From Blastomyces gilchristii SLH14081 (Eukaryota > Ascomycota > Eurotiomycetes > Onygenales > Ajellomycetaceae): a stretch of DNA of 64,000 bases. Of the stretch, positions 1-63,535 are shown one piece after another. The first letter of the stretch is position 1; every line of letters begins with the position of its first letter. The notes below the pieces were generated by a model that saw nothing but the letters and a program-made list of their open reading frames with translations, was not told the origin of the DNA and made no database searches. The stretch is from positions 1,796,720 through 1,860,719 of the forward strand of contig NW_003101676.1 in assembly GCF_000003855.2 (NCBI RefSeq), in the 5' to 3' direction. The position numbers and the translations under genes are program-made.

Positions 1-1386
1 GTATGACATTAATGTCATTTATCACAAGATTGACTGAAATGCTAATATAGAAATGTGTACACATACATGTAGAGAAATTGAAGAAGAGCACAGAACTCAC
101 AGAATCAGAAGCCAGAGCAGGGAGAACAGAGATAGAAGAAATGAAAGAAGGAGACATAGAATCAGATGAATGATGACAGAAGTCACCCAGCACTGAACAC
201 TTATAACTCAGTGTGCATATAACCTTCTCTGCAGAAGAGGGAGAGAAAGTGATAGAAGAAGCTTGAGAGTAGAAGAGAGTAGTCTCAGTAGCATTATCAT
301 CTTTGATTAGAATGATCTCTGACACTGAAGCAACTAAGAACTATTATTAGCATATAAAAATTGCAAACTCAGAGATGAGAACAGTTACTGAATGAACACT
401 CACTGATCTTAGAGTTGTACATGTAATTACAACACACACAAGGCTCCTCAGAAAGAGAGAGAGAGACATGAGAGAATGCAGAAAGCAGAACACAGTGTGC
501 AAACAGCTTATTCTCACAATGACATCTCAGACAAGGCATACAAGCCTCACACCTGCAGATGTAAAAGAGAACAACATTCATATTCTCATTTCTGAAAACA
601 TGAATATCTTTCGCCTGTATCATGAAGTTAGATGACAGACACTAGAGAATAGACTGATACAGATCTATCATTCTGAAGGAATTCATCAGAGCAGATGTCT
701 CTACAATGTTGAACTTTACAGTCATGAAAAGCTTCTTAATATCTGTGAATATCACAACTTCATACACAGTAAAACTCATAATGATTTTTCCTAAGAACAG
801 AAAAATCAGTATTAGAAAGAAAAGATGAAAAAGAAAAAGACTTATAATCTCAACACTGTTGAAGAAGAGAGTGATTCTCTGATATGAATAAATAATTGCT
901 TCATTATGAATATTTAAAATAAATATAATAATTAATGTCTACAATCAAGCTTCAGATAGTCATGTTATACACAGTCTTCATACAATAAATTATTCTGAGA
1001 GTCAGTAAAAAGAGTGAGAGTATATACACTGAGAAATGTGATTCATTAAGTCTATACAATATCTTCTTGAAATGAGAAGAGCTGATAATAAAAGCAGAGA
1101 CAGTAAAACCAGAAGTAGCAGAAGTGAGGATTGTGAGAACAGAGGTAGTAAGAGAGAGAGAACCAGACACAGAAGCAGGTGTAGAAGATTGAGAGAGAGT
1201 AGCAGAGAAAGGAACAGAGAGAACAGAGAAGAATATGAGAGACTCAGTCATACATGACACAGATAATTCCTTCATTATCACATTCTTCAAGTTCTCAATC
1301 AATGATTCAACACTGAGTTCACTATCATCAGTGAATACAGATCTGTCAACATATGAAGATTCTATATAAATAAAAATAACATATCA
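1..1386 (-). pseudogene. Antisense spliced gene in G2 copy A (unknown function, 3' end cut)
   Basis: On the strand opposite gag-pol, three exons can be read from about 1386 down to the window edge. The intron 1 equivalent is 845-791 (55 bp, its GT mutated to AT, ending TTCTTAG). Intron 2 is 403-334 (70 bp, GTGAGT, branch-like TGCTAAT, ending TTCTTAG). Removing both joins the open blocks 1302-952, 623-404 and 333-1 in one frame. The last 110 or so codons have no stop. Exon 1 contains a Ser/Thr-rich stretch followed by a conserved block (HFKKILYRLNESHFSVY). Near the assumed start the frame is disturbed relative to copies C and D. The protein family is not recognised. Confidence rests on agreement among the copies. 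Confidence 0.6.
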
Positions 1387-1932
1387 GCATCTGCATTCAT
1401 ATAAAATCATGCAAGAAAACACAATCAGAAACTCACTGAGAAGAAAAAGATCAAGAGTGTACAAGGAGGTGAAGAAGGTGTGTTATTCATGATAGTACAT
1501 TCTGGCAATCATTAGAAGATAAACAAGTCCTGGCCATGTACATTTCACAACATGTTACACTTACTGCTAATAAACTGCCTGGTATGAGCACTACAATGAC
1601 ACTTGTTGTGAGAATGAGAGGTCATTGCCAGGAATGCATATAATGTGATAGATGAACAGATGAAAAGAGTTGAACAGAAGAAGAAGTAGAAATCTTGAAT
1701 GAGATAGTGATATTCAATGATGATGATGATGAAGAAGATGATTGAAGAATGAGAAAAGTTAGTGAATGAGTGATGTAATATAGTGAAAGTTTCTTTGTGA
1801 GAGTGTATACAGAACACTAGCTGAATCAGAGATAGGTTACACAATCATGAAATGCTAGTGATGAGCTAATCTGCATGAAGCTAGAGTGTACAACATGGTC
1901 ATGTGGGCGTGACCAAATCTGATGAGGGAGAA

Positions 1933-6250: not shown

Positions 6251-7710
6251 ATGAATGTAGATATTGATATATTTGTTTTTATTTATATAGAATCTTTATG
6301 TGTTAACAGATCTGCATTTGCTAATGATAGTGAATATCTCAGTGTTAAATTATTAATTAAGAACTTGAAGAATGTGATAATGAAGAAATTATTCATATTA
6401 TGTATAACTAAGTCTCTCACATCTCTCTGTGTCTCTTCTATCACTGTTTCTCTCTCTGTCACTCTCTCTTAATCTTCTACACTTGTCTCTGTTTTCAGTT
6501 CTCTCACTTCTGCTACCTCTATTCTCACTATTTCTGCTTCTGCTACTTCTGCTTCCTCTGTTCCTGTCACTTCTATTGTCATTATCAGCTCTTCTTATTT
6601 CAAGAAGATGTTATATAGACTTGATGAATTATATTTCTCAGTATATACACTTCTACTCTTTTTACTAATCTCTAGAATAATTTATTGTATAAAGACTGTA
6701 TATAATATAACTATCTGAAGCTCAGTTATAGATACTAATTATTACATTTATTTTCAGTATTTATGATAAGATAATTATATATTTATATCAGAAAATTATC
6801 TCTCTTCTTAACAGTGTTAAGAGTATAAGTCTTTTCTTTTTCATCTTCTCTTCTAATACTAATTTTTCTAGAAGAAATTGTTATAAGCTTTGTTATGTAT
6901 AAAGTCATAGTATCTACAGATATTAAGAAACTTTTTATAACTATTAAATTCAATATTATAAGTATATTCACTCTCATGAATATTTTTAGAATAATTAACT
7001 TATATTAATCTATTCTCTGATATTTATCATCTGACTTCATAATACAGATGAAGAATATTTATATTTTGAGAAATAAGAATACAGATATTATACTCTTTTA
7101 CACTTATAGATATAAGACTTACACATCTTATCTAAGATATTATTATAAGAATGAGCTGTTTATATACTGTGTTCTGCTTTTTACATTCTTCTATATCTCT
7201 CTCTCTCTTTCTGAGAAGTCTCATATGTGTTGTAATTATATGTATATCTCTAAGATCAGTGAGTATTTATTTAATAACTATTCTTATTTCTGTTTTTACA
7301 GTTTTGTACACTAATATTAACTCTTAGTTACTTCAGTATCAGAGACTATTTTAAATTCTGAAGATAATAATGCTGCTGAAACTACTCTCTCTCATTCTCA
7401 AGCTCTTCTTATTATTTTCTCTTCCTTCTCTGTGAAGAAGATTATATATATATTAGATTATAAGTATTCAGCTCTGAGTAGCTTCTGCTATTATTTATTC
7501 AGTCAGTCTGTACTCTCTTCTACAGTCTCTCTTATCTCTGCTCTTTCTGTCTTGACTTCTGATTCTGCAGATCTTATACTCTTCTTCAATTTTTCTATAT
7601 ACATGCATACACATTTCTATATTGAAATTTCAGTCAATCTTGTGATAAACAACATTAATATTGTACACAGAGTGATAGAGGAACTGAAGATATATACAGT
7701 GTTATTATAA
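6251..7710 (+). pseudogene. Antisense spliced gene in G2 copy B (unknown function)
   Basis: Same gene as 24541-26002, on the strand opposite gag-pol. It starts at an intact ATG (MNVDIDIFVF). Exon 1 is broken after about 73 codons, and the intron 1 equivalent (6825-6871) has lost 8 bp. Exon 2 (open block 7048-7258) and exon 3 (7328-7710, wholly open, ending at the conserved TAA) join in frame when a 69-bp intron 2 is removed (GTGAGT at 7259, branch-like CACTAAT, TTAG at 7327). That exon 3 stays open in such a mutated copy is notable, although it has few Trp codons that could become stops. Function is not recognised. Confidence 0.55.
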
Positions 7711-23845: not shown

Positions 23846-24012
23846 TGTCATTCAAATATCCCTTCCGCCAGCGTACAATTACAGGCGTACGCCGGCTTCT
23901 TATATATCGTACGCTAAATTAATTAGTGGCCGCTATGGCCCCTTTACATTTGTAAGCAAGTTCAGAAGCGGCTGCGTTATTATCTGACAGTTGTACATTC
24001 TTCCGAACCACA
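23846..24012 (-). repeat. G2 3' LTR, copy C (167 bp)
   Basis: Plus-strand form TGTCATTCAAAT...CCGAACCACA. It contains GGCGTACGCCGGCTTCTTA, a TATATCGTACGC block and GTGGCCGCTATGGCCCC. It keeps many CpGs in contrast to the CpG-free interior. Confidence 0.9.
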
Positions 24013-24540
24013 TCCTCTCTCACCAGATTCAGTCATGCTCATGTGACCATAACATCTGTCCTAGCTTCATGCGGATTAGCACGCCACTAGTGTTCATAAT
24101 CTTGTAATCTATTCCTGATTTGACTAGTGTTCTGTGTACATTCTCACAAAGAAACTTTCACTATATTACATCACTTATTCACTAACTTTTCTCATTCTTC
24201 AATCATCTTCTTTATCATTATTATCATTGAATGTCACTATCTCATTCAAGATTTCTACTTCTTCTTCTGTTCAACTCTTTTCATCTGTTCATCTATCACA
24301 TTGTATATATTTCTGATAATGACTCTCTGTTTCTACAACAAGCATTCTTGTAGTACTTATATCAGGCAGTTTATTAGCAGTAAGTGTAATGCATTGTGAA
24401 ATGTGATTAGAACTTGTTTATCTTCTAACAATCATCAGAATATACTATCATAGATGACACATCTTCTTTATCTTCTTATACATTCTTGACTGTTTTTCTT
24501 CTCAGTGAGTTTCTGATTGTGTTTTCTGACACAATTTTAT
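24013..24540. other. G2 region between 3' LTR and antisense gene, copy C
   Basis: About 530 bp upstream of the antisense gene start. It contains a plus-strand open stretch (24127-24399, FCVHSHKETFTILHH...) also open in copy A on the corresponding strand (1844-1545). It could be an additional upstream exon, a leader or promoter, or chance; no splice link to the main gene could be established. Confidence 0.35.
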
Positions 24541-25114
24541 ATAAATGCAGATGCTGATATATTTGTTTTTATTCCTATAGAATCTTTATATATTGACAGA
24601 TTCACATCTGCTAATAATAGTGAACTCAATGTTGAATCATTGATCAAGAACTTGAAGAATATAATAATGAAGAAATTATCTGTGTTATGTATAACTAAGT
24701 CTTCTGCATTCTTCTCTACTCTCTCTGTTTCTTTCTCTGCTGCTCTCTCTCTTCAATCTTCTACACCTGCTCCTGTGTCTGATTCTCCCGCTCTCACTAC
24801 CTCTGCCTCTGTGTCTGATTCTCTCACTCCTGCTATCTCTACTCTCTCTGATTCTGTCATCTCTGCTTTCATTATCAACTCTTCTCATTTCAAGAAGATA
24901 TTGTATAGACTTAATAAATCATGTTTCTCAGTATATACACTCTCACTCTTCTTATCAATCTCTAGAATGATTTATTATATAAAGACTGTGTATAACATGA
25001 CTATCTGAAGCTCAGCTGCAAACACTGATTATTACATTCATTTTAAATATTTATGATGAGATAATTATTCATTCATATCAGAGAATCACTCTCTCTCTCA
25101 ACAGTGTTGAGATT

Positions 25115-25169
25115 GTAAGTCTTTTTCTTTTTCATCTTTTCTTTCTAACACTGATTTTTCTGTTCTTAG
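25115..25169 (+). other. Intron 1 of antisense gene (55 bp)
   Basis: Donor GTAAGT, a pyrimidine-rich body, branch-like TTTCTAACAC, and acceptor TTCTTAG. Being 55 bp it shifts frame, and the downstream open frame is exactly the shifted one. Copies A (845-791) and D (52979-52925) have the same 55-bp length with the donor G mutated to A. Confidence 0.75.
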
Positions 25170-25556
25170 AGGAAATTGTTATGAGTTTTATTATGTACAA
25201 AGTTATAATATTCACAGATATCAAGGAACTTTTTATAACTGTAAAGTTTAATATTATGAGAACATTCACTCTAATGAATTTCTTTAGAATGATAGATCTG
25301 TATCAGTCTATTCTCTGACATCTGTCATCTGACTTCATGATGCAGACAAAAGATATCTGTGTTTTCAGAAACAGAAATGCAGATATTGTACTCTTTTACA
25401 CCTGCAGATGTGAGACTTATACACCTTGTCTGAGATATCATTATGAGAATGAGTCATTTGCATGCTGTGTTCTGCTTCCTGTATTTCTCTGTATCTCTCT
25501 CTCTCTTTCTGAGAAGCCTTGTGTGTGTTGTAATTGTGTGTACAATTCTAAGATCA

Positions 25557-25622
25557 GTGAGTATTTATTCAGTAATTATTATCCCTGCTTTTGCAGTTTT
25601 ATATACTAACAATAGTTCTTAG
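25557..25622 (+). other. Intron 2 of antisense gene (66 bp)
   Basis: Donor GTGAGT, branch sequence TACTAACA, and acceptor TTCTTAG. It contains the TAA and TAG that would otherwise separate two open blocks of one frame. Lengths in other copies are 70 (A), 69 (B) and 70 (D), and each removal still joins the flanking exons in frame. Confidence 0.78.
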
Positions 25623-26002
25623 TTACTTCAGTGTCAGAGGCTATTTTAATTGAAGATGATAATATCACTGAGACTATCTTCTTCTGCTCTCAAGCTTCTC
25701 TCATCACTTTCTCTCTCTTCTCTGCAGAGAAGATTGTGTTCACACTGAGTTGTAAGTGTTCAGCTCTGAGTGACTTCTGTTATTATTTATCTGATTCTGT
25801 GTCTTCTTCTTCTTCTGTTTCTTCTGTCTTCATCTTTTCTGTCCTGACTTCTGGTTCTGCAGGTCTCATGCTCTTCTTCAATTTTTCTATGTATATGTGT
25901 ACACATTTCTATATTAGCATTTCAGTCAATCTTGTGATAAATAACATTAATGTTATACACAGAGCAGTAGAGAAATTGAAGATATACACAGTGTTGTTAT
26001 AA

Positions 26003-39373: not shown

Positions 39374-41358
39374 TTAACTCTCTCTTTTCTGCAGTGAGAT
39401 TGTGCATAGTTCTCATCAGTCAAGGGCCGCAGTCTCAGATAACATGAAACTTAGAGTTCTGGTCAGATAATCATAGTTGACTCATTTCACAAGATATTGT
39501 CAGCTGCAGTTACAGAGTCTCTCATTGAGAATATCTTTAATCTCTTATTCAAGTTCATTATCTTCTTCTATAATCTCTGATGACTGCCAGTCAGAAATCA
39601 GTTGAGAAGAAAATAAGTTAATAATAATATGACAGAGCAAGCTTATATGAAAGACATTGTAAATCTCTGATAATATGTCAAGATAGTAGTTGTGACTGTC
39701 TAGAACTTCTATCACTTTATATTTAACATGATGATGATTCAGTGTATAAGATGAGTATGTGATTCATATATTCTTAAGATTTAATCACATCAAATCTTCT
39801 ATTTTATATTACTCAGTAGAATCTCAATGAACATTGAATTGATTTTCCTAATCTTGTTTTGCACTTATCATGAAGACTTCTGCTCAGTCACAGATGTTTC
39901 AGAGCTTTGTTACTATATTATCAGCAATCTGAATCAGACTTCAAGAGTTCAGTGTGAAATGTGTGATCTCTAGAAGATTCAATACTTTCATATAATATCT
40001 GTATGTAAGAAAGAATGAGCTTATATCTATAGAAACAGCATCTCAGTCATTCATAGTGATCTCTGTATATAAAAGAAAATCATGTCAATCATTCTGTGAA
40101 TAATTATAGAACTTATCAAGATAGTTCTTTACAGTCTGAATTGTTGATTCTGATATATCATCAGTCTCAGAGTGATAGACAGTTGATAAACAGTGTATAA
40201 TTCTAAGAACTTGACAGATTCTTGTTCAGAGAGCACTCACAAATTGATGATCTTAATTCAATACTATAGATCTCAGTAATTCATACATCTGATAGAACAG
40301 GCTCTATAGAAAGACTTCAGTAACTTGTTCAGTACTTATCTTATTACAAGGTTTCAATATTACACTCTTGCTTAATCAGTTCACAATGATCAGAATGTTT
40401 CTATAACTCTTACTCTCAGAGAGATTAACATTAAAGTCAATTACTACATCTAATCAGATTTCATTAAAGATATTAAGTGATTTCAGTAGGTCTTTTCTAC
40501 AGTTCTTTTATAAGATGATGAAAGATCAATAGTTGCAGTTTCAGATAAAATATCTGATACTGTTTAATATCTCAGATCAGTAGACCTCTCAAGAGATTAT
40601 TTAATACAGTTGTTCATAGCCTGAGTGACTGATTACATAAGAATCATGGATCTCTTGCATTATTCAGATGTGTAAGAATTTAAAGTAAGAAATTCAGTGT
40701 TGTTTGCAGAATTGCAGAGTGTTATTATCATTAATTAAGTATTCAGAGATGTCAGTTCTTATATATAGTTCTGGGAAAAATCAGAATGCTTCTTGATATA
40801 CTGTCTCAGTAAGTGCTTAAAGAAGTATATCAGTTTGAACTGTTATATATTACAATTTATTCAATGTAGATTCAGAAGATGTTCTGATCAGTGAAGTATA
40901 TATAATACTATGAGTGATCTTATCATGATTAACTAGTATCTTCAGATTCAAGAGTCAGTGTTCTTAATTTATTCAGTAAGTATGTGTTACATCAGATAAT
41001 ATATCTTACTCTTATTATAAAAGAGCATCTGTCATTGAGTTCTGACTGTCAAAATAGTAGTGTATTGTAAAATGAAAACAGTTTAAAAACTCAGATCATT
41101 GCATCTGTTATTCAGTAAGCTTACAGATAATTATAAAATACTTAAGATTCTTATAATCTGTGATTATCTCAAATTCAGAGATACTTCAGAGTTCAGAGTC
41201 TCATTCTTCTAGACAGTGTATAATTATAAGAAGTTTCTTATCATAGATCTTATAGTTGCATTCAGCAGAACTCAGTTTCTTAGATATAAAGATATATAAT
41301 TATAAGATATTTTCATTATTATATTGTAATATAGCTTTCTCTATAATATAGTCAGAGA

Positions 41359-41864
41359 TAGACTGGCCGCTGGAATCATGAATTTCACGTTTGATTCCAT
41401 TTGATCTGGTCTCATACATTTCTTGACATGAATCCCGCTGGGACTGACTATCAAAAAGACATGTAAAGTGACTATATATCAGATCTTAAAATGAAACCAT
41501 GACTTGAAAAAAATAAGAAAGTGGTCTCATTTGGTCCCATTTAGTCCCATTCTTAGCATAAAGTTACTATTTTTAGACATTTTAAGGTTTTTTTTAGACT
41601 ATTTTTAATTTTTTAAAAAGTAACACTTTTTCATAACACTCAAATGAGATTTAAAGTCATTTAAAGTAATAAAAATAATTTAAATTGAGAAGTGGAAATC
41701 ATGATCTCATTTGAAAAATGTGACAAGAGTAGACAGTAAGTCTCACTGAGACAGTATGAGACTACTATCTAATGTTAAACCCGTGTAATGGGATCAGTCG
41801 AATTGATAATGAAACTATCAAAAAATCTGGTCCTGGTCTCAGACACGGTCACACGGTCAGTCTA
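41359..41864 (-). mobile_element. hAT-like MITE, copy M4 (506 bp)
   Basis: Target duplication gtcagaga at 41351-41358 and 41865-41872, perfect. Inserted in G1 RNase H. Inverted orientation. Confidence 0.93.
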
Positions 41865-42463
41865 GTCAGAGAAGTCAGCTTCAATCACTATTTTACAGTC
41901 AGAATTAAATATTATTAGCAGAGATGTATTAATGAATATCTTCTTCATCTATGTAAATGCAGCATCAGTATCTGCTGACTATTAAAATACTGAGTTCTTC
42001 TTAATGAGTTCTGTAAGTGATCTTACAATCTTGAGAAGTTTCACATAAATCACTGATAGAAGTTAGCAAATTCAATGAAGCTTTGTATATCTTTCACAGT
42101 GTATGAGACTTCTCATTCAAGAATAGCAGAGATCTTCTCAGAATTTATTCAGATCTTCTTATCAGCTTCTATGATAAAGCCTAGATAATTTGTACTTTTA
42201 ACTTCAAAATCATACTTATCTATGTCTATCAGTAGTTCTGCTTCTTATAGTTATTATAATACTCTTTGCATGTATTCTTAATATTCTTTTCTAAACTCAT
42301 CAGTGAAGATGAGAATGTCATTGAGATATACAGATATAAATTTATCAAGAAAATCTCAGAGTGCTTAGTTAATATACTTCTAAAATATACTGAGAATATT
42401 AGTCAGTTCAAAGAGTGTGACTACTTATTCAAAGAAATCATAACATGTTCAGAATACTGTAAG

Positions 42464-45243: not shown

Positions 45244-45341
45244 TCTGATAGCATGTTTAAAAACTGATGAGAAGTGCAGGCTTCTTCAGAACATGATAAT
45301 TCTGTCTATGAAGTGATTCATAGTTATCATGTCAGTGTGAT

Positions 45342-45847
45342 TAGACTGACCGTGTGACCGTGTCTGGGACCAGGACCAGATTTTTTGATAGTCTCATTAT
45401 CAATTCGACTGATCCCATTACACAGTTTTAACATTAGATAGTAGTCTCATACTGTCTCAGTGAGACTTACTGTCTACTCTTGTCACATTTTTCAAATGAG
45501 ACCATGATTTCCACTTCTCAATTTAAATTATTTTTATTGCTTTAAATGACTTTAAATCTCATTTGAGTGTTATCAAAAAGTGTTACTTTTTAAAAAATTA
45601 AAAATAGTCTAAAAAAAACCTTGAAATGTCTAAAAATAGTAACTTTATGCCAAGAATGAAACTAAATGGGACCAAATGAGACCACTTTCTCATTTTTTTC
45701 AAGTCATGGTTTCATTTTAAGATCTGATATATAGTCACTTTACATGTTTTTTTGATAGTCAGTCCCAGCGGGATTCATCTCAAGAAATGTATGAGACCAG
45801 ATCAAATGAGACTAAATGTGAAATTCATGATCCCGGCGGCCAGTCTA
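45342..45847 (+). mobile_element. hAT-like MITE, copy M6 (506 bp)
   Basis: Target duplication agtgtgat at 45334-45341 and 45848-45855, perfect. Inserted in the G2 leader. Little mutated. Confidence 0.93.
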
Positions 45848-46059
45848 AGTGTGATTTTAAAACATCTTAAAAGATAGCATATGAAGAAGTGATGAGTGAA
45901 AGAGCATCTGATTGATACTGCTCTGCTTGTTGAAGAAAAACTTCACACTCAGATGAATGCTATGTATGCGAATGAATGAGATGTGAGAAAAGAGATGAGA
46001 GTGATGAATCAGATTCAAAGAAGATCACTCTCTACTTAGAAGAATAAAAGAGAGATAAT

Positions 46060-52087: not shown

Positions 52088-53554
52088 TTATAACAATACT
52101 GTATATATCTCTGATATCTCTATCACTCTGTATACAACATTAATGTCATTGATTGCAAGATTGACTGAAATGCCAATATAGAAATATGTATACATGTGTG
52201 TAGAAAAATTGAAGAAGAGTATGAAACCTGCAGAATCAGAAGTCAAGACAGAAGAGATAGAGACAGAAGAAATAGAAGAAGAAGAGAATGCAGAATTAGA
52301 TAAATAACAGCAGAAGTCATCTGAGACTGAATACTTATAATCTGATGTATGCACAACCTTTCTCACAGAGAAGGAAGAGAAAGTGACAGAAGAAGCTTAA
52401 GAATGAGAGAGAGTAGTCTCAGTAATGTAGTCATCTTCAATTAGAAAAGTCTCTGATACTGAAGTAACTAAGAATCATTATTAGTGTATAAAAACTGCAA
52501 AATCAGAGATGAGAATAGTTACTGAATGAACATCTACTGATCTTAGAGTTGTACACATAATTACAACATGCATAAGGCTCCTCAGAAAGAGAGAGAGAGA
52601 TATAAGAGAATGCAGAAAGCAGAATACAGTGTGTGAATGATTCATTCTCACAATGACATCTCAGACAAGGCATATAAGCCTCATGTCTGTGAGTATAAAA
52701 GAGTACAACATCTGTGTTTCTGTTTCTGAAAACATGAATATCTTTCATCTGCATCATGAAGTCAGATGACAGATGTCAAAGAATAGACTGATATAAATCT
52801 ATTATTTCAAAGAAATTTATCAGAGCAGATATATCTGCAATATTGAATTTAATAATTATGAAAAGTTTCTTAGTATATGTTAATATCATGACTTTATGTA
52901 TAATAAAACTTATAATGATTTTCTCTAAGAATAGAAAAATCAGTGTCAGAAAGAAAAGATGAAAAAGAAAAAGACTTATAATTTTAATACTGTTGAGAGA
53001 GGGAATGATTCTCTGATATAAATGAATGATTATCTTATCATAAATATTTAAAATGAATATAATAATCAGTATCTGTGACTGAGCTTCAGATAGTTGTGTT
53101 ATATACAGTCTTTGTACAATAAATCATTTTAGAGATTAATAAGAAGAATAAGAGTGTACATACTGAGAAATGTAATTCATCAAGTCTATATAATATCTTC
53201 TTGAAATGAGAAGAGCTGGTAATGAAAGCAGAAGTAATAGTAGAGACAGAGAGAGCAGAAGTAGTAGAAGTGAGAATTGTGAGAACAGAAATAGTGAAAG
53301 TAAGAGAACTGAAAACAGAGATAAGAGTAGAAGATTGAGAGAGAGTGATAGAGAAAGAAATAGCAGTAGAAGAGATAGAAAGAAATATAGAAGACCTGAT
53401 CATATATAATATAAATAATTTCTTCATTATCACATGCTTCAAGTTTTCAATCAATGATTCAATATTGAGATGTTCACTATTATTAGCAGATATGAATCTG
53501 TCAACATGTGAAGATTCTATATGAATAAAAACAAATATCAGCATCTGTGTCTAT
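52088..53554 (-). pseudogene. Antisense three-exon gene in G2 copy D (unknown function)
   Basis: Minus-strand gene opposite gag-pol. Exon 1 is 53554-52980, intron 1 52979-52925 (55 bp, donor mutated to ATAAGT), exon 2 52924-52538, intron 2 52537-52468 (70 bp, GT donor, branch-like CACTAAT, TTCTTAG), exon 3 52467-52088 with TAA. Distances between open blocks and splice sites equal those in copies A and C (165 and 219 nt), and all phases agree. Exon 1 has a Ser/Thr-rich stretch followed by HFKKILYRLDELHFSVC. Exon 2 has Cys-rich parts (CLRCHCENESF, ACCNYVYNSKI). The start ATG is changed to ATA. Confidence 0.7.
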
Positions 53555-54270: not shown

Positions 54271-54774
54271 ATTAGTTAACAGACTGATGATATCTTCATC
54301 TATACTTAGTTTTATAAGTATCTTCAATCTTTATAATGAATAGAGAGTGAGATTAGAAGTATTAAAATATGTAGAAGTATCTAGATATTTCTTCAGTACT
54401 TATATCAGATTTATATCTGATTCAGTTAGTGTTAAAATTGTCTGTACAGAGGTTTGTATTGAGATATTTATTAAATTTTCTTATATTAATATTGTTGAGT
54501 TACATGCATATCAGCTATCTATTACTATTGTAGTTTCAATATTATTTAAACTCACTGTGATACTGTATCTATGCTTGCATTTAAGAGTTCTCTTATATTA
54601 TCAGTAGATATAGCTGTATTATTCATTAAATATGTGATATCTATGAAATTGAAAGAAATATAATTTTATAAATATTTTATATATCTAAGATATTAGAACT
54701 CTTAGATCTTTCACTGATATTCTCTTATAGAATCTTATTACAGAGCTAGAATAACTAATAAGCAAGCTTCTATC
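54271..54774 (-). pseudogene. G1 gag region, minus copy, remainder
   Basis: Continuation of the minus-strand G1 beyond G2 copy D. It aligns inverted with the gag start at 19690-20050. No intact frame on the coding strand. Confidence 0.65.
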
Positions 54775-55280
54775 TAGACTGACTGTGTGACCGTGTCTGA
54801 GACCAGAACTAGAATATTTGATGATCTCATTATCAATTTAACTGATTTCATTACACTGTTTTAACATTAGATAGTAGTCTTATACTGTCTCAGTGAGACT
54901 TACTGTCTACTCTTATCACATTTTTCAAATAAGATCATGATTTCCACTTCTCAATTTAAATTATTTTTATTGCTTTAAATGACTTTAAATCTCATTTGAG
55001 TATTATCAAAAAGCATTACTTTTTAAAAAATTAAAAATAGTCTAAAAAAAACCTTAAAATGTCTAAAAATAGTAACTTTATGCTAAGAATGAAACTAAAT
55101 GAGATCAAATAGAATTACTTTCTTATTTTTTCTAAGTCATAGTCTCATTTTGAGATCTGATATATAGTTACTTTGCATGTTTTTTTAATGATTAGTCTCA
55201 GCAGAATTCATATCAAGAAATGTATAAGACTAGATCAAATGAAACTAAATGTGAAATTCATGATCTCAGCAGTCAGTCTA
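54775..55280 (+). mobile_element. hAT-like MITE, copy M7 (506 bp)
   Basis: Target duplication cttctatc at 54767-54774 and 55281-55288, perfect. Inserted in the G1 leader. Strongly mutated, comparable to M2. Confidence 0.92.
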
Positions 55281-55432
55281 CTTCTATCTGAGAACTCAGT
55301 GTTTATTTAACTGATTAAGACTCAGTGTCTGCTTAACTAATTATTATTTCTCTATTTTCTATACATTATTATATATTCAGATATCTCAGTGAGTAATTAT
55401 TTTTAATAAGAAGATAATAAACATTTTTCTAA

Positions 55433-59400: not shown

Positions 59401-61814
59401 TGTGATTCTTGTATCTACTGTGATTGATAACATGTATAATATGAAAGTCATGATAGACAGTGATCTATATTACTATGCAATGATAAAATCTTCAGTTGTA
59501 AGATATTATAATCTTCAGTGTATCTCTTTATCAAAACTCTGACTTCTTACAGAATTTGATAATCTGAAGAATGTTTGTATCTGTTATATAGTGAAACTAA
59601 ACATAGATATGAGAGAATATTAATGTGAAGATGTCTATACATATGAAGTTGATAATCTTGATTATAATCTTATATTAGAACTTATCTAGCTATCTGAACA
59701 AGGCATCTTACTGAATACTTGAAACAGAAGCTTGATATTCTCTAATGATAATAGAATTCATAAAGATGATATTCATAAGACTATGAACCTTACACAGATC
59801 TCTGTCAACACTTATGAAATACTCTGAAAAAGAAGTCATTATCAAAATCACTGACAGAGTCACTGACAAGTTCATTAACAGCAGAATTATATGTCAATCT
59901 ATTCTGTCAGTCTGACTGATATTAAAAAGATTCTAGAAAAGTTATTCTGTATTACAATAACAGATTCTCATATAAAACTCTCTCAATAATATCATGAATA
60001 TCTAGATATCTTTTAACAAGATAATATTATAAATATACCTCTCTTATAAGATTCTGAAGTGAATCACAGTATCAAGTTAGAGAAAAAGAATGATAAGAAC
60101 TCTGAACTGTCATGAGACTCTCTTTATAACATATCTCAAGATGAACTTCTTCTTCTTTAAAAGATACTCAATGATCTGTTGAATAAAGAATTCATATGTA
60201 TTAGCAACTCTTTCACTGCAGTCTCTATTCTCTTTGCAAAGAAATCAGATAAAGAACTCTAATTCTGTGTGAATTATTAAGAATTGAACAGATTAACAAA
60301 GAAAGACTGTTATTCTTTATCTCTTATTAATGAAACTCTAGCTTGTATTGAACAAGCTCAATGATTTACAAAGTTAGATGTTATCACTATGTTTCATAAG
60401 ATCTGTATCACTGAAGAAGATGAGTGACTTACAGCATTTCAAACATAATATGATCTCTTTGAATAAGTAGTCACATTCTTTGAACTGATTAATGTTCTCA
60501 GTACATTTCAGAAGTATATTAACTGAGCACTCTGAGACTTTCTTGATGAATTTGTATCTACTTATCTAGATGACATTCTCATCTTTATCAATGAATTCAG
60601 AAAGAAACATTAAGAGCATGTGCAAAGAGTATTATAACAACTACAAGAAGCAGAACTATCAATTGATATTAATAAGTATGATTTCAAAGTCAAGAGTACT
60701 AAATACTTAGATTTTATCATAGAAGCTGATAAGGAGATCTGAATGAATTCTGAGAAGATCTCTGCTATTCTTGAATAAGAGGCCTCATGCACTGTGAAAG
60801 ATGTATAAAGCTTTATCAGATTTACTAACTTCTATCAGTGATTTATATGAAACTTCTCAGATATCACAAGATCACTTACAGAACTTACTAAGAAAGACAC
60901 AGTATTTCAATAATCAGCAGACACTGAAGCTGTATTTATATAGATGAAGAAGATATTCATTAATACTTCTCTACTAATAATATTCAATTCTGATTATGAG
61001 ATAGTTATTGAAGCTGATTTCTCTGACTATGTAATAGAAGAAGTGATATTACAATATAATAATAAAGATATTCTATAATTATGTGTCTTCATGTCTAAGA
61101 AACTGAGTCTCACTGAATGCAATTATAAGATCTATGATAAGAAACTTCTTACAATGATATACTGTTTAGAAGAATGAGACTCTGAACTCTGAAGTATCTC
61201 TGAATTTGAGATAGTCATAGATTATAAGAATCTCAAATACTTCATAACTATCTGTAAACTCACTGAATAATAGATGCAATAATCTGAGTTCTTAAGTCAC
61301 TTTCATTTTACAATACACTACTGTTCTGACAGCTAGAACTTGATGACATATGCTCTCTCATGACAAGAGTAAGATATATTATCTGATATAACAGATACTT
61401 GCTGAATGAACTGAGAGCATCAGCTCTTAAATCTGAAGATACTAGTTGATCAAGATGAAATAACTCATGACACTATACACACTTCTTTAATTAGAATACT
61501 TTCTCTTCAAACTGACACTGATACTGATACTGATATCTCAACTTCTCCTGAATCTACACTGAATGAATTATGACATGTAACAGCTCAAACTGATAAACTT
61601 CTTCAAGCACTTACTAAAGCAGTACATCAAGAAGCACTCTGATTTTCCTCAGAACTACATATAAGAATCAACATCTCAGAATACTTAATCAATGACAATA
61701 ATACTTTACAGTTCTATAAGTGATGTTGAGTTCTCTACTCTGAACTCTTACATACTCAGATAATGCAAGAGATGCATGATTTATATATAACTGATTATTC
61801 AGGTTATGAACAAC
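59400..61814 (+). pseudogene. G1 pol: protease, RT, RNase H, integrase start
   Basis: A protease-like region near 59400-59480 (VMIDSDLYYY). RT near 60220-60840: SILFAKKSDKEL, FCVNY-ELNRLTKKDCYSL, and an intact catalytic block STYLDDILIF at about 60556-60585. RNase H near 60985-61330: [39 protein letters not shown]. Integrase starts near 61655 (LHIRINISEYLINDNNTL). It contains a short run of Asp-Thr repeats (about 61512-61536) absent from the other copy. Trp codons are usually TGA or TAA/TAG. Interrupted by MITE M8 at 61815. Confidence 0.85.
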
Positions 61815-62320
61815 TAGACTGACCGTGTGACCGTGTCTGGGACCAGGACCAGATTTTTTGATAGTCTCATTACCAATTCGACTGATCCCATTACACGGTT
61901 TTAACATTAGATAGTAGTCTCATACTGTCTCAGTGAGACTTACTGTCTACTCTTATCACATTTTCCAAATGAGATCATGATTTCCACTTCTCAATTTAAA
62001 TTATTTTTATTGCTTTAAATGACTTTAAATCTCATTTGAGCATTACCAAAAAGTGTTACTTTTTAAAAAATTAAAAATAGTCTAAAAAAAACCTTAAAAT
62101 GTCTAAAAATAGTAACTTTATGCCAAGAATGGGACTAAATGGAACCAAATGAGATCACTTTCTCATTTTTTTCAAGTCATGGTTCCATTTTAAGATCTGA
62201 TATATAGTCACTTTACATGTTTTTTTGATAGCCAGTCCCAGCGGGATTCACGCCAAGAAATGTATGAGACCAGACCAAATGAGACCAAATGTGAAATTCA
62301 TGGTCCCGGCGGCCAGTCTA
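61815..62320 (+). mobile_element. hAT-like MITE, copy M8 (506 bp)
   Basis: Target duplication tgaacaac at 61807-61814 and 62321-62328, perfect. The empty site is seen in the other G1 at about 23205-23225 (GCATGAATAACTG). Least mutated copy, close to the family consensus. Confidence 0.94.
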
Positions 62321-62328
62321 TGAACAAC

Positions 62329-63535
62329 TATATTAAATAATCTCTCAGAAGTTCTACTGATCTGAGATATTAAACAGCATCAGACATTTTATCTGAAACT
62401 GTAACTATTGTTTCTCTGTCATCTTATAAAAGAACTGTAGAAAAGGCCTGCTGAAATCACTTAATATCTCTGATAGAATCTGACAAGATGTGACTATTAA
62501 CTTCACTGTTAATCTCTCTGAGAGTAAGAACTGTAGAAATGTTCTGATCATTGTGAACTAATTGAGCAAGAGTGTTATATTGAAACTCTGTAATAAGATA
62601 AATACTGAACAAGTCACTGAAGCTTTTCTAAGAAGCTTATTCTATTGAATGCATGAATTGCTGAGATCTATAGTATCAGATCAGAGCTGTTAATTCATGA
62701 GTACTCTCTAAATAAGAATCTATCAAGTTCTCAAGATTACACACTGTCTGTCAACTGTCTATCACTCTGAGACTGATAATGCATTAGAATGAATAATTCA
62801 GACTGTAAAGAACTATCTCTGTAAGTTCTGTAATCACTTATAAAATGATTGACATGATCTGCTTCTACACACAGAGATCACTATCAATGAATGAGATGTC
62901 ATTTTAACAGATATAAGCCTGTTCTTTCTTACACACAGTTATTACATAAAGATTTTGAATCTTCTAGAGATTACACAGTTTATATCAGACTCTCACAGTC
63001 TGATTCAGATCACTGATAATATAGTAATAAAACTCTGAGATGTCTGTGATTGAGCAGAGATCTTCATGATAACTGTAAAACAAGATCAAGAGAATCAAAT
63101 CAATGTTCATCAAGACTCTGCTAAATAATATAAGATAGAAGATCTAGTATGATTAAATCTTAAGAATATATGAATCACACATTCATCTCATACACTAGAT
63201 TACTATCATATCAAGTATAAAGTGATAGAAGTTCTAGATAGTTATAACTACTGTCTTGACACATTATCAGAGATTCATAATGTCTTTCACACAAGCTTGC
63301 TTCACTGCACTGTCACTGATCTGTTCTCTTCTCAACTAACTTCTGACTGATAACTGTCAGGAATCATAGAAGAAGATAATGAGCTTGAGTAAGAGATTGA
63401 AGATATTCTTAATAAGAGATCACACAGCTGCAGTTAATAATATCTTGTGAAATAAGTCAGTTATAATCAACTGACCTGGACTCTGAGTTTCATGTTATCT
63501 GAAACAGCAGTTCTTGACTGATAAGAACTGCTTCT
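62329..63535 (+). pseudogene. G1 integrase core and chromodomain
   Basis: Integrase near 62500-62940: NFTVNLSESKNCRNVLIIVN, LSK, HELLRSIVSDQS, LSTVYHSETDNAL, INEWDVIL, matching the DDE core of Ty3/gypsy integrases. A chromodomain lies near 63361-63480: EEDNELE-EIEDILNKRS, YLVK-VSYNQLT-TLSFMLSE with Trp as TGA, the YLVKW.GY..TWEP pattern. Chromodomains bind methylated histone tails and direct integration to heterochromatin in this clade. Confidence 0.82.

What the first reader, a model, noticed from the sequence alone, without database searches (positions are those of the whole stretch)
24541..26002. Spliced antisense gene carried by a Ty3/gypsy retrotransposon
In all four G2 copies the strand opposite gag-pol holds the same three open blocks between integrase and 3' LTR. 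In copies A, C and D the blocks are joined exactly in frame by a 55-bp intron 1 and an intron 2 of 70, 66 and 70 bp; copy B supports intron 2 with 69 bp. Splice phase is identical (after the first base of a codon), and distances from splice sites to open blocks are the same (165 and 219 nt). Donors are GTAAGT and GTGAGT, the branch sequences include TTTCTAAC and TACTAACA, and acceptors are TTCTTAG. Intron lengths vary while exon frames are kept. An antisense gene could keep introns through retrotransposition because they are not spliceable in the genomic RNA. I know antisense extra ORFs only from some plant Ty3/gypsy elements; an intron-bearing fungal case would be new to me.
Basis: partly seen in the sequence, partly recalled or inferred. 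Interest (0 to 1): 0.9.

Follow-up and report, generated by a model that had tools for sequence, protein, structure and literature searches.

The report
Antisense spliced gene inside fungal retrotransposon
A very abundant, now decayed, jumping element of a Blastomyces fungus carried on its opposite strand a four-exon gene whose protein resembles a protein of the fungus itself, which gives a rare clue to where such backwards passenger genes may come from.

Summary
The antisense gene is real, but its structure differs from the finding. In 59 copies, indels shared between copies are multiples of three in exons (11 of 11) but mostly not elsewhere (13 of 55; p 2e-6). Two annotated proteins match end to end: BDBG_17024 (450 aa) and B. 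dermatitidis BDCG_06430 (463 aa).

Corrected model, copy at 24 kb: exons 24319-24379, 24581-25114, 25170-25571, 25623-26047; three introns (201, 55, 51 nt), all after a codon's first base. None of 60 copies read is free of stops.

The protein carries Pfam DUF3716. A single-copy gene in GC-rich DNA has the same layout, suggesting capture of a cellular gene; the direction is unproven. An antisense gene in a fungal gypsy element is not new (Boty brtn, 2011); introns plus a cellular relative appear new, but the brtn paper was not readable. Expression and function are untested.

The parts
23846..24012 (-). 3' LTR (relative to gag-pol), 167 bp, begins TGT and ends ACA
   Evidence: direct repeat with 31951-32117, 90.4% identical; ends read
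31951..32117 (-). 5' LTR
   Evidence: tblastn of P0001 to L061 (20 of 20 residues) and, more weakly, of P0001 and P0005 to the window; ATG in 43 of 59 copies, ATA in 15, ATT in 1
24380..24580 (+). intron 1 of the corrected model, 201 nt here, 182-320 nt across 59 copies
   Evidence: donor GTAAGT in 53 of 59 copies, acceptor AG in at least 49 of 59; spliced reading matches P0001, P0002 and P0005
24581..25114 (+). exon 2 (Ser/Thr/Pro/Ala-rich segment, then a conserved segment)
   Evidence: 15 of 17 distinct indels are multiples of three, all 8 shared ones are
25115..25169 (+). intron 2 of the corrected model (finder's intron 1), 55 nt in 34 of 62 copies, 47 nt in 27, 46 in 1
   Evidence: the annotated P0002 and P0009 remove exactly this stretch when laid on L061
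25170..25571 (+). exon 3; carries DUF3716 (PF12511) at about 25388-25570 by position-for-position comparison with L061
   Evidence: whole-genome profile hits covering positions 2-58 of 59 at C7:2385072-2385254 and 3-58 at C7:1849243-1849422, the latter in the window's fourth copy; transversion sites by codon position 2/3/12
25572..25622 (+). intron 3 of the corrected model, 51 nt here, 49-55 nt across 62 copies (finder's intron 2 began 15 nt earlier)
   Evidence: donor GTAAYT in 51 of 62 copies; the finder's site has no GT in L061; lengths
25623..26047 (+). exon 4, ends at the stop 26045-26047; linker and C-terminal end shared with the cellular paralogue
27775..27939 (-). integrase zinc-binding domain (PF17921) of decayed pol
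28309..28635 (-). RNase H domain (PF17917/PF17919) of decayed pol
28873..29316 (-). reverse transcriptase (PF00078) of decayed pol
6251..7710 (+). same antisense stretch in the second window copy
52088..53547 (-). same antisense stretch in the fourth window copy; DUF3716 profile hit at 52524-52703
1..1400 (-). same antisense stretch in the first window copy, cut by the window edge

Best explanation
A Ty3/gypsy LTR retrotransposon family of Blastomyces carried a protein-coding gene in antisense, between integrase and the 3' LTR. The gene has four exons and three introns and encodes about 473 amino acids: a short N-terminal exon, a Ser/Pro/Thr/Ala-rich region, a conserved region with a Cys-rich DUF3716 domain, a linker and a conserved C-terminus. 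Its layout matches a single-copy chromosomal gene, so it most likely descends from a DUF3716 gene of the cell. Because it lies antisense, its splice signals should not work in the sense genomic RNA, so each new copy keeps the introns (inferred). Most likely an antisense transcript starting in or near the 3' LTR, whose edge is about 300 nt upstream of the ATG, is spliced and translated, and the protein acts in the nucleus as an accessory regulator of the element, as proposed for plant GENE23/TRP28 proteins and as HTLV-1 HBZ does (function inferred by analogy only). C-to-T decay, strong at CpG, later destroyed the copies.
For: Shown here: pol opposite to the gene in the window copy and in the element holding BDBG_17024. 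End-to-end homologues of 450 and 463 aa, E 1e-158 and 4e-122; all 20 listed hits are from Blastomyces. Indels shared by two or more of 59 copies: exons 11 of 11 multiples of three, elsewhere 13 of 55, p 2.3e-6; introns alone 5 of 19, p 8.7e-5. Exons 2-4 in phase in 52 of 62 copies while introns change length; by length, introns are present in every copy examined (59 of 59 for the first, 62 of 62 for the other two). Transversion sites in exons 2-4 by codon position 17/15/28, p 0.022. DUF3716 above the curated cut-off in P0001 and P0002 and in the window's own fourth copy. Annotated P0002 and P0009 splice the middle intron exactly as modelled; P0001, P0002 and P0005 the first one. Cellular paralogue: full DUF3716, E 1.8e-13, in DNA of about 50% GC, matches to P0002 in the same order with single-comparison E 2e-4 and 0.014; only one place in the genome matches its domain region.
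Against: No RNA evidence was available. No copy read has the whole frame open: 5 to 25 stops in 60 of 60, one in L061 with the conserved splicing. Codon-position bias is clear only in exon 3; exons 2 and 4 give 9/5/9 and 6/7/7. The middle intron is as poor in transversions as the exons (rate 0.02 against about 0.05), so conservation alone does not separate it from coding sequence. Annotated models disagree on splicing: P0001 uses another splice at the middle intron, P0009 at the first, P0001 and P0002 at the last. Copies were fetched with the antisense stretch as query, so presence in most copies of the family was not tested. The paralogue match is weak outside DUF3716, and capture could have run the other way. 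The nuclear role is analogy only; the structure model was too poor to use (mean pLDDT 41).
Confidence: 0.8

Rival explanations
1. The antisense gene came from another mobile element that inserted into the ancestor of this family, not from a cellular gene. DUF3716 would then be a domain that travels among LTR elements, and the chromosomal gene would be a domesticated copy.
For: A second repeat family with a different DUF3716 frame lies between pieces matching the end and the start of an LTR-like repeat, about 2.6 kb apart; 28 long matches, its own place included.
Against: The second family shares little beyond the domain with this gene: no tblastn match of P0002 or the cellular protein to it at E 0.1. 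The chromosomal gene shares the C-terminal segment as well as the domain.
Confidence: 0.25
2. The antisense transcript matters as RNA (for example as a source of double-stranded RNA that limits the element) and its protein does nothing.
For: Antisense RNA control is discussed for such elements in the review PMC7264820 (passages).
Against: Selection kept the reading frame: shared exon indels are all multiples of three and splice phases are preserved.
Confidence: 0.08
3. The open blocks are a by-product of the pyrimidine-rich strand, with chance splice-like motifs; no gene exists.
For: The strand is rich in C and T, which lowers stop frequency; no copy is fully open.
Against: End-to-end protein homologues with high scores, a curated domain, the indel test and a chromosomal relative with the same layout. 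Note that annotated proteins of the same repeat family are themselves predictions.
Confidence: 0.02
4. BDBG_17024 is a gene domesticated by the fungus from one element copy and is now kept by host selection.
For: In that locus the gene region keeps 42-57% GC, while the pol frame of the same element holds many stops.
Against: The element still has both LTRs (94.9% identical) and a matching short duplication at its ends, so it looks like an ordinary, fairly recent insertion; the gene has one in-frame stop with conserved splicing; the annotated protein avoids it by another predicted splice.
Confidence: 0.1

Closest known systems
brtn of Boty-like Ty3/gypsy elements of Botrytis cinerea (Zhao et al. 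2011, Virology 417:248; paper not held, seen only through passages of PMC7264820, PMC8365987, PMC4227169 and PMC5987419)
   Same: Fungal Ty3/gypsy element with an additional gene antisense to gag-pol, between pol and 3' LTR
   Different: Sequence relationship not testable here (no brtn sequence obtained); introns and any cellular relative of brtn unknown to me
Antisense additional ORFs of plant Ty3/gypsy elements: Grande gene23, RIRE2, Retand/TRP28, PvRetro13 (PMC7264820: section 5 and passages; PMC11963269: passages)
   Same: Position and orientation; proposed nuclear or nucleic-acid-binding accessory protein; Grande gene23 is transcribed antisense from its own promoter (review passage)
   Different: No TRP28 domain here; three introns here, while the word intron occurs 0 times in either paper's main text; the review says aORFs lack similar genes outside the elements, whereas here a chromosomal relative exists
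HBZ of HTLV-1 (PMC1459196, title and abstract start in a search listing only)
   Same: Spliced antisense transcript of a retroelement, encoding a protein
   Different: HBZ is a bZIP protein; no bZIP was found here, and a transcript start in the 3' LTR is only inferred
Antisense homing-endonuclease gene with a spliceosomal intron in a nuclear rDNA group I intron of the myxomycete Didymium squamulosum (PMC9548176, abstract read)
   Same: Antisense gene of a mobile element holding a small (47 nt) spliceosomal intron, reported as spliced in vivo
   Different: Different element class and protein
Pfam PF12511, DUF3716
   Same: Domain match above the curated cut-off
   Different: No function given by Pfam; 0 of 5.39 million held papers name it

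Membership tests
Ty3/gypsy LTR retrotransposon | LTRs, and RT, RNase H and integrase of LTR-element type | tested here: met
   LTR pair 23846-24012/31951-32117; PF00078, PF17917, PF17919 and PF17921 in one minus-strand frame. That it is gypsy rather than another class rests on the domain set and on the genome paper (PMC4595289, passage) saying gypsy accounts for almost all repetitive DNA; no RT tree was made
Antisense additional ORF between pol and 3' LTR (aORF-3R) | Coding region antisense to gag-pol between integrase and 3' LTR | tested here: met
   same in the L061/L063 element
Antisense additional ORF between pol and 3' LTR (aORF-3R) | Present in most copies of the family | tested here: inconclusive
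   4 of 4 window copies have the stretch, but the other copies were fetched with the stretch itself as query
Antisense additional ORF between pol and 3' LTR (aORF-3R) | Antisense transcript | not testable with these tools
   no RNA data; the annotation pipeline used strand-specific RNA-seq among other evidence (PMC4595289 passage), but support for these models was not visible
Pfam PF12511 DUF3716 | Score above the curated cut-off of 22 bits | tested here: met
   P0002 30.3 and P0001 23 bits; window copy 26.1 bits. Below the cut-off: P0007 20.8 bits; of ten decayed translated copies one gave a weak match, E 0.04
Retand TRP28 (PF04195) antisense proteins | TRP28 domain | tested here: not met
   no such hit in 10 proteins scanned against Pfam at E 1
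HBZ-type antisense bZIP protein | bZIP domain | tested here: not met
   no bZIP hit
brtn of Boty | Sequence homology to BRTN | not tested
   no BRTN sequence obtained; source paper not held

The most novel reading that the evidence does not exclude
A cellular, intron-bearing DUF3716 gene was captured in antisense by a fungal Ty3/gypsy element and kept under protein-level selection through many rounds of copying, its introns preserved because they are invisible on the replicating strand. DUF3716 was recruited more than once by LTR elements of Blastomyces. This would be an antisense passenger gene of an LTR element with a traceable cellular origin, and it suggests DUF3716 is a domain useful to retroelements.
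Probability: 0.5. Interest if true: 0.75.

Novelty: new variant of a known kind. Interest (0 to 1): 0.62.

Why it matters
Antisense accessory genes of LTR retrotransposons have unknown origin and function; the 2020 review (PMC7264820) argues they are not captured genes because similar genes are lacking outside the elements. Here a chromosomal relative with the same layout exists, and introns record the strand on which the element copied itself. The case makes two questions testable: where such genes come from, and whether their proteins serve the element. It also shows that a set of annotated Blastomyces 'hypothetical proteins' match this element gene, which matters for gene counts in a human pathogen whose genome is swollen by these repeats.

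Tried and rejected
Rejected: reading the downstream frame straight through 25115-25169 without splicing. It is open under decay-aware counting, but 27 of 62 copies are 8 nt shorter there, which would break it. Rejected: an exon end near 25006 with another intron, because P0001 and P0002 run through. Rejected: the finder's donor at 25557 and stop at 26000. Rejected: a sense-strand gene in this stretch; in decay-aware counts no sense frame is open for more than 459 nt between 23841 and 27189, though that count also breaks the pol frame, so it is strict.

Led nowhere: Pfam on single decayed copies of the gene and on two of the three pol frames; solved structures, best hit E 0.31; structure prediction of exon 3, mean pLDDT 40.9, so no fold search was made; homologues outside Blastomyces, none at E 0.01 with P0002 (991 candidates scored) nor at E 10 with residues 140-330 (283 candidates). 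A first extended alignment had about half the loci in the wrong orientation and was discarded, redone. Three most decayed copies (L036, L053, L060) were dropped (one search keeps them in its 62-copy counts, not in its 59-copy counts); L001 and L031 were dropped from the copy counts as duplicates of window copies.

Full report
WHAT WAS CHECKED. The window lies in contig C7 (3,179,325 bases) of a 74.8-Mb genome. The best protein hit, BDBG_17024, comes from a contig of exactly that length in Blastomyces gilchristii SLH14081, so I take that as the organism (inference). The genome paper (PMC4595289; abstract and passages seen) describes GC-poor tracts of 29.6% GC, dominated by gypsy elements, in this strain, which fits.

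THE ELEMENT. The copy at 24 kb runs from 23846 to 32117 with 167-bp LTRs (90% identical) that begin TGT and end ACA. RT, RNase H and the integrase zinc finger lie in one minus-strand frame. Three more copies lie in the window. Searches with three of the four copies gave 835 to 844 first-look candidates each, of which 40 were scored; 60 loci were delivered. After removing two duplicates and adding the four window copies I worked with 62.

DECAY. The copies are heavily decayed, L061 less so. Among variable columns of 33 copies 1,419 are transitions and 80 transversions, and 227 dinucleotide sites hold at least three CA and three TG; in the 60 such sites printed, CG is mostly gone outside the LTR. 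Hence stops in single copies say little about the ancestor. As a control, the pol frame, which must once have been open, has 6 codon sites that are stops in at least 90% of copies over 1.1 kb (one may be pol's own end); the two other frames of that strand have 21 and 16. The finder's antisense frame likewise has 6 such sites in 1.34 kb. The two long annotated proteins run through that region.

IS IT A GENE? Yes, on sequence evidence. First, indels: among events shared by two or more of 59 copies, 11 of 11 in exons are multiples of three, against 13 of 55 in introns and flanks (p 2.3e-6); counting every distinct event, exons give 20 of 34 and the rest 50 of 186 (p 5e-4), and all 14 non-triplet exon events are single-copy. 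Second, exons 2-4 keep phase in 52 of 62 copies while the three introns take 17, 3 and 6 different lengths. The middle intron is 55 nt in 34 copies, 47 in 27 and 46 in one. Third, a profile of ten translated copies (X at stops) finds 20 proteins among 7,991 scored candidates, all from Blastomyces, the best two covering 99% of the query. Fourth, transversion sites in exons 2-4 fall on codon positions 1/2/3 as 17/15/28 (p 0.022), a signal carried by exon 3 (2/3/12) and not by exons 2 and 4. Transversion sites make up 131 of 504 in the sampled part of the first intron plus the 3' flank, several times the exon rate of about 0.05, although alignment there is poorer; but the two short introns, with the finder's boundaries, show 0.02 and 0.09, so this rate alone does not tell exon from short intron.

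CORRECTED STRUCTURE. Exon 1 24319-24379; intron 24380-24580; exon 2 24581-25114; intron 25115-25169; exon 3 25170-25571; intron 25572-25622; exon 4 25623-26047. Coding length 1,422 nt including the stop, 473 amino acids. All introns interrupt a codon after its first base. The first exon follows from tblastn of the annotated proteins and from the donor GTAAGT in 53 of 59 copies. The middle intron is spliced exactly so in the annotated P0002 and P0009 when laid on L061; P0001 uses another splice there. The last donor was moved because the less decayed copy L061 has no GT at the finder's site, while a donor 15 nt downstream is kept in 51 of 62 copies; against this, 31 of 62 copies do read GTGAGT at the finder's site. 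The stretch between completes the DUF3716 domain, which profile hits cover to position 58 of 59. P0001 and P0002 use other predicted splices at the last intron, so their models are not proof of it.

THE PROTEIN AND ITS RELATIVE. P0002 and P0001 score 30.3 and 23 bits for DUF3716 (cut-off 22). In the genome 38 places match the family at E 0.001 (150 of 189 candidates scored), one of them in the window. The best, C1:270009-270194 (E 1.8e-13), lies in DNA of about 50% GC in what looks like a two-frame gene. Its first frame matches P0002 over the domain (E 2e-4), its second matches the P0002 C-terminus (E 0.014), in the same order; these E-values are for single comparisons. A search with its domain region finds only that place. 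One possible intron of this gene, 124 nt, also follows the domain and also splits a codon after its first base; two other intron choices leave the frame open too. I read this as common descent, most simply capture of a cellular gene; domestication in the other direction is not excluded.

HOW IT WOULD WORK. Shown: position, orientation, coding constraint, domain. Inferred: transcription from in or near the 3' LTR (the ATG lies 306 nt inside it); splicing; persistence of introns because sense RNA does not present them as introns (introns remain in every copy examined); a regulatory nuclear role by analogy with plant antisense proteins and HBZ. Two facts temper this: no expression data, and no usable structure.

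THE COPY BEHIND BDBG_17024. It sits in an element with 175-bp LTRs, 94.9% identical, and a matching (T)ATTTA at both ends; pol is on the opposite strand and broken. The gene has one in-frame stop under the conserved splicing. I do not propose it as a working copy.

WHAT IS KNOWN. [quoted passage not shown]). The review states that similar genes are lacking outside elements. The main text of the Retand paper (PMC11963269, passages) does not hold the word intron. An antisense endonuclease gene with a spliceosomal intron is known in an rDNA group I intron (PMC9548176, abstract). I found no paper naming DUF3716 or three of the proteins, and the main text of the Blastomyces genome paper does not hold the word antisense. 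The statement that a spliced, cell-derived antisense gene in a fungal gypsy element is unreported rests on searches of an open-access library that lacks most subscription journals, including the brtn paper.

VERDICT. A real antisense, intron-bearing gene with a corrected structure; a new variant of a known kind, made more interesting by its chromosomal relative and by a second DUF3716-bearing repeat family with LTR-like ends.

Noticed in passing
L065 and L068 (C13:768900-773800): A second repeated family, 28 long matches with its own place included, holds a different DUF3716 frame (L065 473-910) between pieces that match the end and the start of an LTR-like repeat of the window; no Pfam hit in six frames of L068, so perhaps a non-autonomous LTR element.
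   Followed up: partly
window 33198-33706, 41347-41868, 45338-45859, 54769-55285, 61813-62335: Copies of an LTR-like repeat of about 510-520 bp in both orientations; its end also borders the second DUF3716 family.
   Followed up: partly
whole window: Decay pattern: CpG almost gone (observed/expected 0.16), CC and GG also depleted (0.34, 0.29), TpA not raised (0.82). This differs from the classical CpA-centred repeat-induced point mutation known from Neurospora (recalled).
   Followed up: partly
P0003-P0020: Eighteen further annotated Blastomyces 'hypothetical' or 'uncharacterized' proteins match this element gene and look like pieces or misjoined models of it; two of them (BDBG_16960, BDBG_16979) come from a contig of the same length as the window's contig.
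   Followed up: no
L064 17-823: Upstream of the chromosomal DUF3716 gene on the same strand lies an open frame of 268 aa with a hydrophobic start; not studied.
   Followed up: no
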